Positions 44,543 to 53,689 of a DNA stretch of 64,000 nt are shown here, one piece after another. How positions within the stretch are numbered: position 1 is the first letter of the stretch; the number at the start of each line of letters is the position of its first letter. Source of the stretch: Blakeslea trispora (taxonomy: Eukaryota; Mucoromycota; Mucoromycetes; Mucorales; Choanephoraceae); NCBI GenBank assembly GCA_025331445.1, contig JAIWNE010000037.1:62001-126000 (forward strand). The letters run 5' to 3'. The position numbers and the translations under genes are program-made. The notes beneath the pieces are model-generated. The model made no database searches. It worked only from the letters and a program-made list of their open reading frames with translations, and was not told where the DNA came from.

Positions 44543-45321
44543 TCATTTCTTCAAGATATTCTCAGGATGAGCATAAGCTTGAGCAACAAACTTGTTATGT
44601 CTACCTAAAGCAACTGCATAGATGTAAAAATTTTTTTTGAGTAAGCAAACCATCACGAACATGACAAATAGACGTGTTTTTTTTGGTTTTGTTTATTACC
44701 TAGGCAGCCCTTGTTACTAAGCTCAACAGATGTAAATGCTAATGTTTTTCCCAACTTATCCACGCGTGCGTCTATGTTGATTTTTTCGCCTTGCTTGACA
44801 CCTGAGATATAACTAATGTTGATATCTGTACTAACACCTGTGGCATATAATCCTTTTGAAGCAATAGCCAAGGATCCTGCAACATCAATCACGGTAGCTA
44901 ATAGACCACCATGAACTGAGCCTAGTCTATTCTATTACATCATGAGTTCAGCTGCTTTTTGAGGGGAGAGAAAATCTATTTTTATCAATAGATTGTGCAT
45001 GTGTGCAACAATTCTTTGGCAAAAAAAAAAAGAGAATTACCAAATGCTTTTTTTCTACTTCGAGTTCGGCTCGAACACGACCTTCTTCTGTATGGAGTAT
45101 CTTGAGCTGTAAAGAAAAGCAATTAACCCAATCTATAAACTTAATCTCTCTCTCTATTTGTTTCATTATTACCCCGGGAAGAACAACTGAGTCATAGCCA
45201 CCTGCTGTCATAAAGCTCTAATATAATTTGTATAAATTGCCTGTTTCTCTCTATAGTAACGGTTTACCTTGAAGACTTTTTGAACAAGTTCAGGTGATCT
45301 CAAGACAGTTGAAGGAAGCAT
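44543..45321 (-). CDS. Hotdog-fold acyl-CoA thioesterase (ACOT13/THEM2-like)
   Basis: Five exons (45321-45268, 45217-45173, 45106-45041, 44931-44700, 44613-44543) give 155 residues, close to human ACOT13 (140). The signature of the PaaI-like hotdog family is intact: Asn56, VHGGLLATVIDVAG with His62-Gly63-Gly64 and Asp71, then TGVSTDINISYISG. The last exon ends ALGRHNKFVAQAYAHPENILKK. These tetrameric enzymes hydrolyse medium- to long-chain acyl-CoA, in mitochondria or cytosol. No clear targeting signal is seen. It lies in tandem behind EAF6, its start 89 bases after the EAF6 stop, so its promoter must be short or lie within EAF6. Confidence 0.92.
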
Positions 45322-46523: not shown

Positions 46524-49500
46524 ATGTCTGAACCAACAGAAGAAAAACGAGTAGAAAACAAAGTACAAAGTGAAGAGGAAACACCTACTTTAACTGGAAA
46601 AGATGAGGATTATGATCAAAAAAGCAATACACATTCCTCAGACATAGAGGATGCTCATGTTGCTACTCATCTTGATAACAGCACAAATCACCATGACGAC
46701 ACTAACACTGGTCATAGCGATGATGATACGCCAACAATCATGATCAATGATCAGACAACGCCAACGACAAATGGCTCAACACATAGCCATGACGACGATG
46801 TCTCCTCGAGCAATAACTCAACCATTGCTGCTGATGATTCTGTCAACGAACAAGATTACCAGCCTACCTTGAGTGAATTTACAGGACCCATCGTTGATTT
46901 CTATAGACACAAGAATATCTTGATGACAGGTGTTACCGGGTTTGTTGGTAAGGCTGTCCTTTGGAAGCTCATAAAGGCCCTACAACAGGATATTGGATCT
47001 ATCTATATTTTGGTTAGAAGCGGAAGTATCAAAAAGAGTAAAATTGGTCGACCATCAGAACGACTAAGGAATGAGATCTTTAACAATAAGGTTAGGGTGA
47101 CACAAAAAGAGAGAGAGAGAGACGTACATCAAGCGGACTAAGCTTTTCTACAAAAAAAGGCCTTTTTGATCTTGAGACGCATGATGGGCAAAACTGCATT
47201 CGATAGTATTGTTAAGAACAAAATCATCCCTATCTCTGGAGACTTGATCTCGCCTGACTTGAGCATTTCTGAAACGGACCGAGAAAATATTATCAATAAC
47301 GTTCATATTGTCATCCATTGTGCAGCCACTTTGAATTACAATGAGCGATTAGATTTGGCTTTAGAGGTAAAATCCCCACCATTACCGCTTGTTTATTCTG
47401 ACCCTTGTTTTATCGCTCTATATGCTTTGATTTAGACAAACACACTTGGAACACTACGCATGATGGATTTGGCAGATGAATGTAAACACATGGGTAAAGT
47501 TTATGTGACACGATTAAGCCAATTGGAATAATCTGACACATTTATTAGAGGCATTTGTTCACATGTCTTTGGCTTATACCGATCAAGGTTTACCGGATGG
47601 CCATGTTCAGGAACGAGTATATCCTATGCCTTTGGGAGATCCAGAAGAACTCTTGACTGAGATTGTAGATCTTGAGCTACAAGACATTCCAAAGATGACA
47701 CAGCGTATTCTGTCCTTTTATCCACATACCTACGCTTTTACCAAATCACTTACAGAACACCTGATTATGAAACGTGTTGATTTGAATCGTATAGAAGAAG
47801 CTCAAGGGGGTAAAGCGCAATGGCCAATAGCCATTGTTCGCGCAACTCAAGTGAGTGCAGGTGCTTTTGAGCCCTTACCAGGTTGGGTGAGTTGAATCTT
47901 TTTTTTTTCTCTTTAGAAATAATTGATTCGAGTTGACATCTCTTCCTTTTTTCTTTTTTCTTTTTAGGTAGATGGTGTTACAGGTGCTAATGGTACTGTA
48001 TTTTTGATGAGTAAAGGTATTCAGGTTCTGCAACCTGATATGGGTCCAATGGCTGCGGATATTGTACCTGTGGACTATCTAGTGCGTGTCATTCTAGGCA
48101 CGGCTGCTATAATGAAACCACCTGGCTATCGATTTCTTTTACCCTACAATGAGAAACTAGAAGACGAAAACGATAGTGATAGCATTGTTATGCCTAATGT
48201 CCAATACTTTCCTTACATCTATCAAGTGTCTGCCTCTGGATTTGATGAAACAACCTGGTATCATGCCTATGACTCCATTCGATCTTACTGGCTTCGTAAT
48301 ACAAAACTAGTTCTGCCTTCAGCACAAGACTATTTTGGCGCTAATCGATCGTTGTTTAAAGCTAAATTTTTCATGAAATATAGCTTGCCTCAATCCTTAT
48401 CTTCTGTTACCAGTGCACTGAATGGTGTAAGTCAGATCAGTGGCCAGGCTACTCATGGTGGAGGTCGGTTTTCTGGTGGATCTCACCAGCAGAACTCAGA
48501 TACCAATCTGCTCAACCGCACACTTGAATTAGCCTCACGTGTAGTAGATGCTGTACAGCCCTTTTTACGTCATCGTTGGATCTTTGATCATCAAAATGTA
48601 AAGCAACTTGAACAAAACATGGCTCATGATCCTCAGTTTCATCTCCAACAATTCAAGCATATGGAATGGAACACCTATATGATTAATTTTGCTTTTGGCA
48701 CACACGCCTATCTACATCCTTCTCCGCCTATGGGCCTTCGTAACATCTCTGTACCTGATGGTTGGGCCTGTGCATTGTATCTACCACCTGGCGTAACTCA
48801 GCATTCGATCATGGACAAACAAATTGAATCTGTCGTGTTTAGTGCTTCAGATATTCAAAAACGAACTGAGCGTATGTTGGCTGAATTAGTAGCATCATTA
48901 GAGAAGCCTGGGCAAGAAACAAGAGATAAGAAGAAGATGGAAGAATGGGTGAATGATTTTGATGCTAGTCTTGATGATTGGTGTCATGACGATTCAGACA
49001 TCCTGAAAAACAAGGATAACATGCTTCATTTAGGGCATTGGATTGACCCTTCAGAATCGCATGAGGAGCATGTCCGAATTGAAGTATTAAATGACAGGAG
49101 AGTGGGACAAAGTATTAAACAGGCAAGTCGTATACCTTCTATTTATTAACAATGAAAAAAGAAAATTGTATCATCTAATATTCCAAAATAATGTTTAGAT
49201 TATTGAAACATCAGGTGTACCACAAAAGACTGTAGTAGGTGAATCACTCAAGATTCTACAGCGCATGAAAGAGCGTACTCAACTTCCTTATATTTGGTCT
49301 GCCGGTGCCTTTTTGAATGCGCTCTTCAAACGATTGTTTACAAGCCTTCGAGTCAACAAGCTTGATATTGCTCGCCTCAAGGAACAGATGCAAGACAAAA
49401 ACGTTGTCTATGTGCCCGTTTCCAAAACAATCATTGATCAACTATTGGTTTGGTACATTTGTTTGCGCTACCAACTTCCCGTTCCTGCCATTGTATGCGA

Positions 49501-51680
49501 TGAAGCACTTGCACTATTAGGCCCTATTTCAGACATCCTTCGCATTTCAGGCGCATACTTTGTACGTCGTGATCAGACCACACGATCCCCTCTGAATACA
49601 TCTGTAGCTGCAGCTTATACTGAAGTACTCTTGAAAGAACATGGCGCTCTCTCTATGGTGATTGAGCGAGCTAGATCAAGAACAGGGCGGTTACAAACAC
49701 CTTATCATGATGGTCTGATGAACATGATCATCGAAGGTACTATTGGTCATAACCAAGAGCCCAATCAACCCCACCTTCAGCCTGTCTCTCCAGCCTCCAG
49801 CATCAGTGGCGCCAGCTTCAGTCCAAAACGAGATACATTGCTTGTTCCCGTAAACATCACCTATGAAAAGATTCCTGAGCTTCGTACATTGATTGATCAA
49901 GTCTTGGATCAGAAGCCACGTAGCATTACAGTCACTTCTACCTTTTTGCGTCCAAGTGCTACTGTAGCAGATCGAGCTGCTAGCAAAGATTCTCAAGGAA
50001 GCTCAGAGAAAGGCAGATATGGTCGTGCTTTTGTTGGTTTCGGCGAGCTTATTGATGTTCGACAAGCTACACAAGAAGCCACATTGCCATCCAACCGTAG
50101 TAAGCGATCAAGGTAAATTCATGTCGCCATGTCTAATTCCTTTTTTACTCTTCAAAAAAGAAAAAAAACTACAAGCCTGTTGACATTTTATATCAATCTT
50201 ATTCTAGTACAATTCCTGTTCGTAATGAAGATGTTGTTGCCGATTATGTTGCTCGCAAAGTACAACGGGGTCAACATGAAGCTGCTGTAGTTAGTCCTGT
50301 CACATTGGTAGCTGCTACTCTTTTGTTTGGACGTGCAGCCGGTGGCATCACCATGGGGAAGATGTACAAGCACGTCTCCTGGCTTCGTCAAGAGTTGTTG
50401 GACAAGCGTATCAATGTTGATTGGCAACCTGATGAGGAAGTCAGTACGATTGTTGCCTATGCTCTTGATCTCTTGGATGCTCGAAGTAATGTGACGATGG
50501 ATGGTAAACGCATAACAGATCAGACTGTGGTGCGCATTGTGGAGCATGCTGATAATGTGATGGATCTTTCCTATATGGCTAGTCAGTTAATAGAAATTTT
50601 CCTTCCTGAGGCTTTGTTTAGTGTAGTTTATCTCTCTGGTAGTCCAAAGGAAGCATTCACCAAACAGGATCTGTTTGCTCAATTTACATTCTTGGTTCGA
50701 TTATTCAAGCATGAATTTGTCTATCCATGGAATCGTGAAGAGGTAATAATATTCTCTTAACAGTGATGTGGATGATAGTGAGAAACTAATATATTCATAT
50801 TTATTTGAAGAAATTTGATACGTTGATGGACTGGTTTGTAAAGAAAAACTTACTTGTGGTAGATCAAGACCGGTATACAAAAGTGGTAACTCTGGAAAAC
50901 AATGAGTTAGAATACACTCGCGTATGTCTGTTGGCTTCGTTTATATACCCTACTTTGGATGCTTATTGGATAACATCATGTTCATTATCTGCTTTACGTG
51001 ATCTGCCCTACATGCCTCGCAAGATTGTGCCTGTTCTTTCTCAATGGATTGCTGCACATTTAATTACAGGCCGTCGTACTATCTATCGTGAGGTTCTCTC
51101 TACTGAAGCAAGTCAAAACGCAGTGGATAATTTCCTTGCCATTGGATTCATTGAGGCTGTTCATCCTAAATCCAAATTATCACCTGATGCTCAAATCTTG
51201 TTACTTGAATTAGGAGTCACTACCAATGAAGATCTAGTTATGGTATCTAATAACAAGAATGTGGATGAAGATGATTCTGTAAGTATTTCTTCTCCCTCCC
51301 TTTTTTTTTTGTAATACTGCTTCCAAAACACACTAACAAAAAAAGCGACTTAGTCTACAACCAAAGAAATCCTTTATCAATTAGCAGACATTGCATCACT
51401 CTGTCATGAAATTGAGAAATATAGATATGTGACTGATCATGCAAATCTGCAACACAATGCTCAAGTGTTTGACAAATGTCAAAACCAAATCCGCTCCATC
51501 TTGAGAGCAGACAAGAGCTATGCCTCTCAACACGGCATGGTTTTAGATAAAGAAGAAGACCAAATGATTCAACTGGTTTATTCTCTGAAAGCAGCTTCTG
51601 CTACACCTATTCCTGCTGATGATGGTTCTACAAAACATTCTAGAAGAGTGTCTCAAGCCTACAACCTAAAGTCCTCATAA
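46524..51680 (+). CDS. Fatty acyl-CoA reductase / DHAPAT-type acyltransferase fusion (FARAT-like)
   Basis: Nine exons (46524-47090, 47160-47366, 47436-47493, 47549-47886, 47968-49122, 49199-50112, 50208-50742, 50811-51278, 51354-51680) give 1522 residues. Residues 1-120 are acidic and disordered. The reductase half (about 125-690) has the NADPH loop TGVTGFVG (135-142), the substrate-side SLAYTD, the catalytic Tyr339-xxx-Lys343 (YAFTK) and a C-terminal FAR domain ending EWNTYMINFAFGTHAYL. The acyltransferase half (about 790-1300) keeps block II GAYFVRRD, block IV LLVPVNITYEKI and the long helical tail of DHAP acyltransferases (VVSPVTLVAATLLFGR). However, block I reads VPVSKTIID, with Ser850 in place of the catalytic His and Asp855 retained, and block III reads ERARSR, not EGTRSR. 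This domain order is that of Tetrahymena FARAT, which makes the fatty alcohol and acyl-DHAP for ether lipids. The C-terminus KSS is not a clear peroxisomal signal. Intron 5 is GC-AG. Confidence 0.9.
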
Positions 51681-52112: not shown

Positions 52113-53689
52113 CTACTCGTCTGCTTTACCTTCAATACCGTTTATAGCATGCAAAAAGAACAAGACGATATTAGATGTACATTGCATATTAAAACCATGG
52201 TACAATCCTCTTAAACTCCAATCGGTTAATATACTCTTTTTCTGAAGTGAAATTCTCTTGCCATGCTTCTTCTTTGCGCTACCGCCTTCTTCCTTGATGA
52301 TACAATAAGCAGCATTAGCCATACCTGTATAAGGCACAGGTCGAGTAGCTACCACAGGCTCGAATCGCTTCTTGCCTGGTGTTCTTGTTCTAATTTGACA
52401 TTGAAGGCGTTTACGAATGGTGTCTAGAGGCAAAGTAATCAACACTTCCAAAGTGTTTAAGCCCAATTCGGCTAAGCTGTACAAAAAGGGGGATTCATTA
52501 GCTGAAATCTTGAAGATTCTATCAATAATCAAAGGTGTTGTGTTCTGTAATAAAGGTGTGATTGTGTGGAAGAGGATGGTTGGGAGTGTGTTGTGTGAGA
52601 AATAGAGACCCCAAAGTCCACCTTCTTCTTGAACAATCGTCTTTAAAGCATGGAAAGGTCCTTTGTATTTACGCTGCAATGGAGAAGCTGATTGAACTTG
52701 TAGTCTAACATGATATTAATGAGCCCTTCTTTTTTTTTTCTTCTTCTTCTCTATATATTAGTCTGCTATTTACCTAGTACGAATCAGTTCCAAAGGACTC
52801 AAGACAAATCCAACCATCAAATGACTAGCAATGAGTGTAGCCAAGTTGGGTCCCACACGATCCAAGTGGACGAGAGGAATGGTATCATCATAAAGATCAA
52901 ACATGTCATTCAAAGATCCTTCCAATGTAGGCTGAAGAAAGAGGTGAGATATTTCGTAAAGCCAGTTGGTATACTGTCCCTTAAATAGAGAGCGCCATCC
53001 TTCATGAGGCTGCTGCATTAGCTTGCCAATACCTTGCCAAACGCCACCTTCTATAGGCTTCAACTGATGCGGTGGGCGTGTGGCATCATCGTATACACTA
53101 GCACGTACAACATAGCCGTTAGCATCCACAATCACTTTCTTCTTAAACAAAGGATCGTCTATGTCCAATGTGCCTATGTTTAAATGGTCGTTGCTATGAC
53201 GACGACGTCGAGCATGCTCCTCTGCATAAAAATCTTCCTCCTCTTCCTCTTCAGAATCGGCCTATGATAGCTTACTCAGTTTTCTCACAATAGTAACAAG
53301 AAAAACCTAAAGGTCCTCAAACTTACAAGCTCTTCCTCATCATCGGAAGTGATAGTGGTTCGAGTAATTGAAGTCACTTCGGCGTCTTCACGAGGCATAT
53401 ATTGTACTTGCAACAAAGTCTTTGATACTTCAAATGGACTACTGAGTGCTGTTGTCAAGTACTTGAGAACGATAAAATTAACGAGTTCTCGAGCAGCTGC
53501 CTTAGAGTCGATCAAATCGTCCATGTCATTAGCATAATAAGGTGAAGTGGCGATAGTTTGCGCGTCGGGTACAACAGTATAGTTGCTACTGTTGGAAAGA
53601 CCCGGTGTATAGTAGGGTCGTAGGCCATTGCCTCCTTTACCTGCAGTAGCAGGAAACGTGGCAAAAGGATGACTTTGATCGGCAGGCAT
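52113..53689 (-). CDS. UGO1: Mitochondrial carrier-like fusion protein Ugo1
   Basis: Three exons (53689-53327, 53261-52774, 52704-52113) give 480 residues, near yeast Ugo1 (502). The N-terminus has the LRPYYTPGLSN motif seen in fungal Ugo1 proteins. Three carrier-like repeats follow, with degenerate Px[DE]xx[KR] motifs: SSPFEVSKTLLQVQ, LSPLELIRTRLQVQ and TLPLDTIRKRLQCQ. A long acidic/basic insert (residues 118-160, Glu-rich then Arg-rich) separates the first two. In yeast Ugo1 is an outer-membrane carrier homologue that links the fusion GTPases Fzo1 and Mgm1. The degenerate first repeat and the insert argue against an ordinary metabolite carrier. A CRE-like TGACGTC lies about 165 bases upstream (53853-53859). 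The assignment is good but rests on motif recall, not alignment. Confidence 0.82.

What the first reader, a model, noticed from the sequence alone, without database searches (positions are those of the whole stretch)
46524..51680. FARAT-type fusion (acyl-CoA reductase + DHAP/GPAT acyltransferase) in a fungus
The spliced gene joins an intact-looking fatty acyl-CoA reductase to a DHAPAT/GPAT-like acyltransferase in one 1522-residue protein. This is the domain order of the ciliate bifunctional enzyme TtFARAT, which supplies fatty alcohol and acyl-DHAP for ether lipids (established knowledge from Tetrahymena). Ether-lipid synthesis is not a known trait of most fungi. If the fusion is genuine and widespread in this lineage, it points to an unrecognised lipid pathway or an independently evolved fusion.
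Basis: partly seen in the sequence, partly recalled or inferred. Interest (0 to 1): 0.75.

Follow-up and report, generated by a model that had tools for sequence, protein, structure and literature searches.

The report
Fungal reductase fused to dead acyltransferase
A mould gene joins a likely fatty-alcohol-making enzyme to an acyltransferase half that keeps its shape but lacks its catalytic residue, so it looks like a re-purposed relative of a protist ether-lipid enzyme and is not by itself a sign that the mould makes ether lipids.

Summary
The fusion is real. Nine exons at 46524-51680(+) encode 1523 aa: fatty acyl-CoA reductase (FAR), then a PlsB/GPAT-type acyltransferase (AT). The genome holds three such fusions, and two searches gave 84 relatives; the 81 with names are Mucorales or Umbelopsidales.

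The ether-lipid reading is not supported. The catalytic His of the AT's HX4D motif is Ser here and His in 0 of 84; the motif III Gly is Arg here and Gly in 0 of 84. Oomycete fusions and a separate GPAT of the same genome keep both. A PTS1-like tail, seen in 4 of 4 oomycete-type fusions, is found in 0 of 84. No alkyl-DHAP synthase was found, without a positive control.

The parts
46524..47090 (+). exon 1: acidic N-terminus, poorly conserved, and start of the FAR Rossmann fold (residues 1-189)
46929..46949 (+). GxxGxxG cofactor-binding motif (GVTGFVG)
   Evidence: sequence; aligned
47160..47366 (+). exon 2 (FAR)
47436..47498 (+). exon 3 (FAR)
47551..47886 (+). exon 4 (FAR)
47731..47745 (+). FAR active-site motif YxxxK (Y340-K344, YAFTK)
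47968..49122 (+). exon 5: end of the FAR fold, Sterile domain, linker (residues 392-776); followed by the GC-AG intron
48511..48717 (+). Sterile domain PF03015 (residues 573-641)
49199..50112 (+). exon 6: acyltransferase half (from residue 777)
49379..49768 (+). Acyltransferase domain PF01553 (residues 837-966)
49421..49438 (+). degenerate motif I SKTIID: Ser851 where HX4D has the catalytic His; Asp856 kept
49664..49681 (+). degenerate motif III E932-R933-A-R935-S-R: Arg933 where others have Gly
50208..50742 (+). exon 7 (GPAT_C region)
50811..51278 (+). exon 8 (GPAT_C region)
51354..51680 (+). exon 9: C-terminal tail and stop codon
51642..51668 (+). conserved C-terminal motif RRVSQAYNL (RRxS resembles a PKA site, recalled); no PTS1-like end

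Best explanation
A FARAT-type fusion protein, found in Mucorales and Umbelopsidales, in which the N-terminal fatty acyl-CoA reductase is probably still an enzyme making fatty aldehyde or alcohol (inferred from intact motifs), while the C-terminal DHAPAT/GPAT-type half keeps its fold but has lost acyltransferase catalysis (inferred from loss of the HX4D histidine and the motif III glycine). The AT half is kept under constraint for another job, most likely binding acyl-CoA or a membrane and steering the reductase; that job is a guess. There is no peroxisomal tail; most relatives carry a conserved RRxSxAYNL tail. The fatty alcohol more likely feeds wax-ester-type products than ether lipids; this is the weakest step.
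Against: Yeast Loa1 has Cys for the HX4D His and is described as an active lysophosphatidate acyltransferase (PMC7613133 passages), so loss of His does not prove inactivity; three relatives carry Cys. Asp856, Arg935 and Pro993 are kept in 84 of 84, which could mean retained chemistry. The alkyl-DHAP synthase search reads exon by exon, was not run on a genome known to have the gene, and the motif pattern would miss a split or variant motif. FAR's Tyr is changed in 11 and its Lys in 3 of 80 relatives with a residue there, so the reductase is not intact in all members. MBOAT_2 and WS/DGAT genes may serve other lipids. There are no expression, enzyme or lipid data.
Confidence: 0.72

Rival explanations
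1. An active FARAT: the AT half still acylates DHAP with an altered site, FAR supplies the alcohol, and the fungus makes ether lipids with an undetected or unrelated alkyl-DHAP synthase.
For: Same domain order as the FARATs of Tetrahymena and Dictyostelium; fold kept; Asp856, Arg935 and Pro993 in 84 of 84; precedent of Loa1 with CX4D.
Against: His and motif III Gly lost in 84 of 84, His replaced by S, A, C, T or Y; no PTS1-like tail; no alkyl-DHAP synthase found; ether lipids described as largely absent from fungi (PMC13256971 abstract and passages).
Confidence: 0.08
2. The AT half is active on another acceptor (for example a fatty alcohol, giving wax esters, or a lysolipid), so the protein is bifunctional but not a DHAPAT.
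For: Asp, Arg and Pro of the site kept and the AT half well conserved; Loa1 precedent.
Against: Loss of the general-base His without one consistent replacement and a bulky residue in motif III; bulky residues there inactivate yeast GPATs.
Confidence: 0.1
3. The fusion arose independently in fungi and does not descend from the fusion seen in oomycetes, ciliates and amoebae. (This is about origin and can hold together with the best explanation.)
For: The fusion is patchy across eukaryotes, so multiple gains or losses are needed (PMC3143110 section 7). In the unrooted FAR tree fungal fusions fall on one side, oomycete and bacterial FARs on the other (97/97).
Against: Rooted on the bacterial rows, the same FAR tree would keep oomycete and fungal FARs together (89/82). 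AT halves of fungal and oomycete fusions share one side of a branch against standalone GPATs (100/93, with a long-branch flag and C231 filled in under half of the columns; 97/91). Same domain order.
Confidence: 0.35
4. The whole protein is a pseudoenzyme or scaffold, reductase included.
For: YxxxK Tyr is His in 9, Ile in 1 and Leu in 1 of 80 relatives; the nine are five of clade C, two Umbelopsis and two others.
Against: The window's own FAR keeps GxxGxxG, Tyr340 and Lys344; Tyr in 69 and Lys in 77 of 80.
Confidence: 0.1

Closest known systems
FARAT of Tetrahymena (ART1/TtFARAT) and Dictyostelium (fatA)
   Same: N-terminal FAR followed by a DHAPAT/GPAT-type half in one chain (PMC7375469 passages; PMC3143110 section 7)
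   Different: Dictyostelium FARAT ends in SKL, is peroxisomal and is needed for the ether storage lipid. The window protein has no PTS1, no HX4D His and no motif III Gly. Their sequences were not at hand, so residues were not compared with them directly.
Oomycete FARATs (P0090 Thraustotheca, P0091 and P0092 Phytophthora) and the unnamed P0093
   Same: FAR, Sterile, Acyltransferase and GPAT_C families in one chain
   Different: They keep HRSYxD, EG(S/T)RSRSG and PTS1-like ends (AKL, SRM, SRM, ARL). P0093 groups with the oomycetes only weakly (93/71; 76/65).
Massospora cicadina P0087 and the unnamed P0089
   Same: FAR plus a degenerate AT half; their FAR halves fall with the Mucoromycota fusions (97/97, unrooted)
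   Different: They keep the HX4D His but have lost motif III (LDSPTLQRG, LDPSPTNGQ)
Human GPAT1 (8e4y) and the standalone GPAT at C231 of this genome
   Different: No FAR part was found at C231; it has intact SHKSHID and EGTRSRLG. GPAT1 has HRSHID.

Membership tests
FARAT (bifunctional FAR + DHAPAT) | N-terminal fatty acyl-CoA reductase domain with GxxGxxG and YxxxK | tested here: met
FARAT (bifunctional FAR + DHAPAT) | C-terminal PlsB/DHAPAT-type acyltransferase domain in the same chain | tested here: met
   fold of a relative
FARAT (bifunctional FAR + DHAPAT) | intact acyltransferase motif I HX4D | tested here: not met
   Ser at the His position; His in 0 of 84 relatives
FARAT (bifunctional FAR + DHAPAT) | intact motif III EGxRSR | tested here: not met
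   Arg for Gly; Gly in 0 of 84
FARAT (bifunctional FAR + DHAPAT) | PTS1 C-terminus (known for Dictyostelium FARAT; perhaps not defining) | tested here: not met
   window protein ends YNLKSS; PTS1-like end in 0 of 84 relatives (five look cut short) and 4 of 4 oomycete-type
FARAT (bifunctional FAR + DHAPAT) | alkyl-DHAP synthase in the same genome | tested here: inconclusive
   none found, no positive-control genome searched
FARAT (bifunctional FAR + DHAPAT) | acyl-DHAP and fatty alcohol formation in vitro | not testable with these tools
   needs enzyme assay
Fatty acyl-CoA reductase (FAR) | NAD_binding_4 plus Sterile domain, Tyr-Lys pair | tested here: met
GPAT/DHAPAT enzyme | catalytic His-Asp pair | tested here: not met
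   Asp kept, His lost

The most novel reading that the evidence does not exclude
In Mucoromycota a FARAT was turned into a fatty aldehyde/alcohol enzyme with a built-in pseudo-acyltransferase that senses acyl-CoA or lipid and controls the reductase, with a phosphorylatable RRxSxAYNL tail and no peroxisomal signal. The family spread into three paralog clades, while the Massospora-type lineage disabled the same half by another route, both after ether-lipid synthesis was given up.
Probability: 0.35. Interest if true: 0.65.

Novelty: new variant of a known kind. Interest (0 to 1): 0.5.

Why it matters
It corrects a tempting inference: domain order alone would credit a large group of moulds with ether-lipid synthesis, whereas the residues say that the acyltransferase was switched off but kept. 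If right, it is a clean natural case of a metabolic fusion enzyme turned into a reductase plus pseudoenzyme, and it predicts fatty alcohols or wax esters in moulds studied for their oils. A survey of Mucoromycota lipid genes (PMC10629195) holds neither 'ether lipid' nor 'fatty acyl-CoA reductase' in its main text but notes WS/DGAT-type homologues that presumably form storage lipids (section 13).

Tried and rejected
Splicing artefact or two genes: rejected (single ORF across the junction in paralog C2; relatives). Recent pseudogene: rejected (conserved across 84 proteins). Alkyl-DHAP synthase: PF02913 gave C251 (best PDB match D-lactate dehydrogenase), C242 (D-2-hydroxyglutarate dehydrogenase) and C35 (judged alike by eye); PF01565 added C220, judged ALO-like by eye; the HHHG[VI]G DNA pattern (motif recalled) gave 0 hits. 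Plasmanyl desaturase PF10520: 0 hits, but no control genome rang, so it says nothing. No hit bore a ciliate or amoebozoan name in the three protein searches; each scored only about 8000 candidates within a length range, so fusions elsewhere are not excluded. In the fold comparison no family is excluded by absence. Paper searches whose listings (12 to 20 titles shown of up to 1019) showed no report of the fungal fusion; PMC8778642 and PMC10406608 were searched for terms and gave nothing relevant; PMC4463594 passages irrelevant. A result against a tidy story: in the FAR tree the two Umbelopsis proteins P0038 and P0039 do not group firmly with clade A (one clade in 38% of bootstrap trees), while in the AT tree clade A is supported (96/97) and clade B less (77/92). 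Rows left out: P0094-P0110 (17 of the 24 hits) from the motif alignment; trees used subsets of 44, 35 and 27 rows; the structure alignment used 59 proteins. Of the 84, P0075 and P0082 hold no FAR family and some others are fragments; they stay in the AT counts. The 84 are cluster representatives, several per species, so they are not 84 species.
Full report
What is there. The gene at 46524-51680(+) splices into nine exons and a 1523-residue protein. Pfam finds NAD_binding_4, Sterile, Acyltransferase and GPAT_C in that order, each above its cut-off.

The fusion is not a gene-model error. The same genome (37.2 Mb, 285 contigs) has two further loci with FAR and AT matches side by side, at C2 and C216. 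At C2 one uninterrupted ORF aligns with window residues 392-1154, across the FAR/AT junction. A protein search gave 64 related proteins (P0001-P0064), the best from Choanephora cucurbitarum at 94% identity, plus two standalone GPATs. A second search added 20 (P0067-P0086), a fusion of Massospora cicadina and a Lysobacter GPAT. Of the 84, 81 bear names, all of genera of Mucorales or Umbelopsidales (taxonomy recalled); P0003, P0075 and P0082 bear none. 82 of 84 carry the reductase family together with GPAT_C or Acyltransferase by the precomputed Pfam columns.

The acyltransferase half has lost catalytic residues. Across the 84 proteins the HX4D histidine is Ser in 71, Ala in 5, Cys in 3, Thr in 3, Tyr in 2 and His in none, while the Asp is kept in 84. 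The motif III glycine is Arg in 49, Lys in 32, and His, Gln or Pro in one each; Gly in none. The paralogs C2 and C216 read SKSLLD and SKTALD. In contrast, four oomycete-type fusions (three named oomycetes and the unnamed P0093), three standalone GPATs from the searches (P0065, P0066, P0088) and the standalone GPAT at C231 of the same genome keep both residues. The PDB sequence alignment shows HRSHID of human GPAT1 against SKTIID directly. The Pfam Acyltransferase score is also weak here (29.8 bits) against 84 bits in the oomycete P0090.

What this means for activity. In PMC7613133 (passages) the His-Asp pair is the charge relay, and replacing either motif III glycine by a bulky residue inactivates the yeast GPATs. 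In PMC5213128 (passages) changing His or Asp of HX4D removed complementation by a Plasmodium GPAT, though the His mutant protein could not be detected. The same yeast review describes Loa1, with Cys in place of His, as an active lysophosphatidate acyltransferase. So inactivity is likely, not proven.

The reductase half looks active in the window protein: GxxGxxG, Tyr340 and Lys344 are present. Among 80 relatives with a residue at the place, Tyr is kept in 69 and Lys in 77; nine have His for Tyr (five of clade C, two Umbelopsis, P0021 and P0077), one Ile, one Leu. Reductase activity is inferred for the window protein and doubtful for the C216-type paralog, which reads HLFTK.

Targeting. A PTS1-like end ([SAC][KRH][LM], pattern recalled) is found in 4 of 4 oomycete-type fusions, in 0 of 84 Mucoromycota proteins and in 0 of 2 Massospora-type ones. 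74 of 84 carry RR[VI]S[EQ][AV]Y[NH]L near the end; the ten without it are five of clade C and five that look cut short, for which the missing PTS1 says nothing either. RRxS resembles a PKA site (recalled). Dictyostelium FARAT ends in SKL and is peroxisomal (PMC7375469 passages).

Pathway. No alkyl-DHAP synthase was found: PF02913 and PF01565 hits are accounted for by D-lactate dehydrogenase, two D-2-hydroxyglutarate dehydrogenase-like genes and an ALO-like gene, and a DNA pattern for the HHHG motif had no match. That these families include alkyl-DHAP synthase is recalled; the PDB comparison of the C251 ORF does list the synthase as a remote relative. No genome known to have the gene was searched, so this is not proof of absence. 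Candidate takers of fatty alcohol exist: MBOAT_2 hits at C253, C57, C260 and C219 and a WS/DGAT-like gene at C168. PMC10629195 section 13 notes such WS/DGAT homologues in Mucoromycota.

Evolution. In the AT tree clades A (96/97) and C (99/100) are supported, clade B less (77/92) (44 rows); in the FAR tree B and C are supported but the Umbelopsis pair P0038/P0039 does not sit firmly in A. Fungal and oomycete fusions lie on one side of a branch supported 100/93 and 97/91 (27 rows, without the longest branches), against standalone GPATs; one search carries a long-branch warning for it. The FAR tree puts the Massospora-type pair with the Mucoromycota fusions (97/97, unrooted). That pair keeps the His but lost motif III, so the AT half appears to have been disabled by a different route there. 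Missing animal, ciliate and amoebozoan sequences limit these trees.

Known and new. The fusion was described in Tetrahymena, Paramecium, Dictyostelium, Polysphondylium, Phytophthora and Naegleria (PMC3143110 section 7); fungi are not named there. Listings of the paper searches showed no report of the fungal fusion; most subscription papers are not held. The Tetrahymena enzyme paper of 2014 was not read, only its citation in PMC7375469. Hence: a new variant of a known kind, and no evidence of fungal ether-lipid synthesis.

Noticed in passing
window 44653-44931 (-): An ORF with a 4HBT thioesterase match (PF03061) lies upstream of the FAR-AT gene on the opposite strand; whether the pair is conserved elsewhere was not checked.
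   Followed up: partly
L034 (G000 C231 ~248.2-250.4 kb, minus): A standalone PlsB-type GPAT with intact HX4D and EGTRSR in the same genome; an apparent frame change inside its GPAT_C region is unexplained.
   Followed up: partly
several rows (P0002, P0016, P0021, P0037, P0040, P0046, P0054, P0086): Some of these fusions are deposited as 'cyclin-dependent kinase inhibitor far1', probably a name-based misannotation of FAR.
   Followed up: no
L022 (C216 paralog) and clade C relatives: The third paralog also has His for Tyr in YxxxK (HLFTK; clade C relatives), so both halves may be catalytically changed.
   Followed up: partly
window 52113-52715 (-): Mitochondrial carrier-like ORF (PF00153) downstream of the FAR-AT gene on the opposite strand.
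   Followed up: no
window 49123-49198: Intron 5 has a GC donor (GCAAGT) and an AG acceptor.
   Followed up: no
P0094-P0096, P0098-P0100, P0102-P0104, P0106-P0110: Fourteen proteins, two with bacterial names (Candidatus Binataceae, Polyangiaceae), combine AMP-binding, NAD_binding_4 and Acyltransferase families by precomputed Pfam: another kind of reductase-acyltransferase fusion.
   Followed up: no
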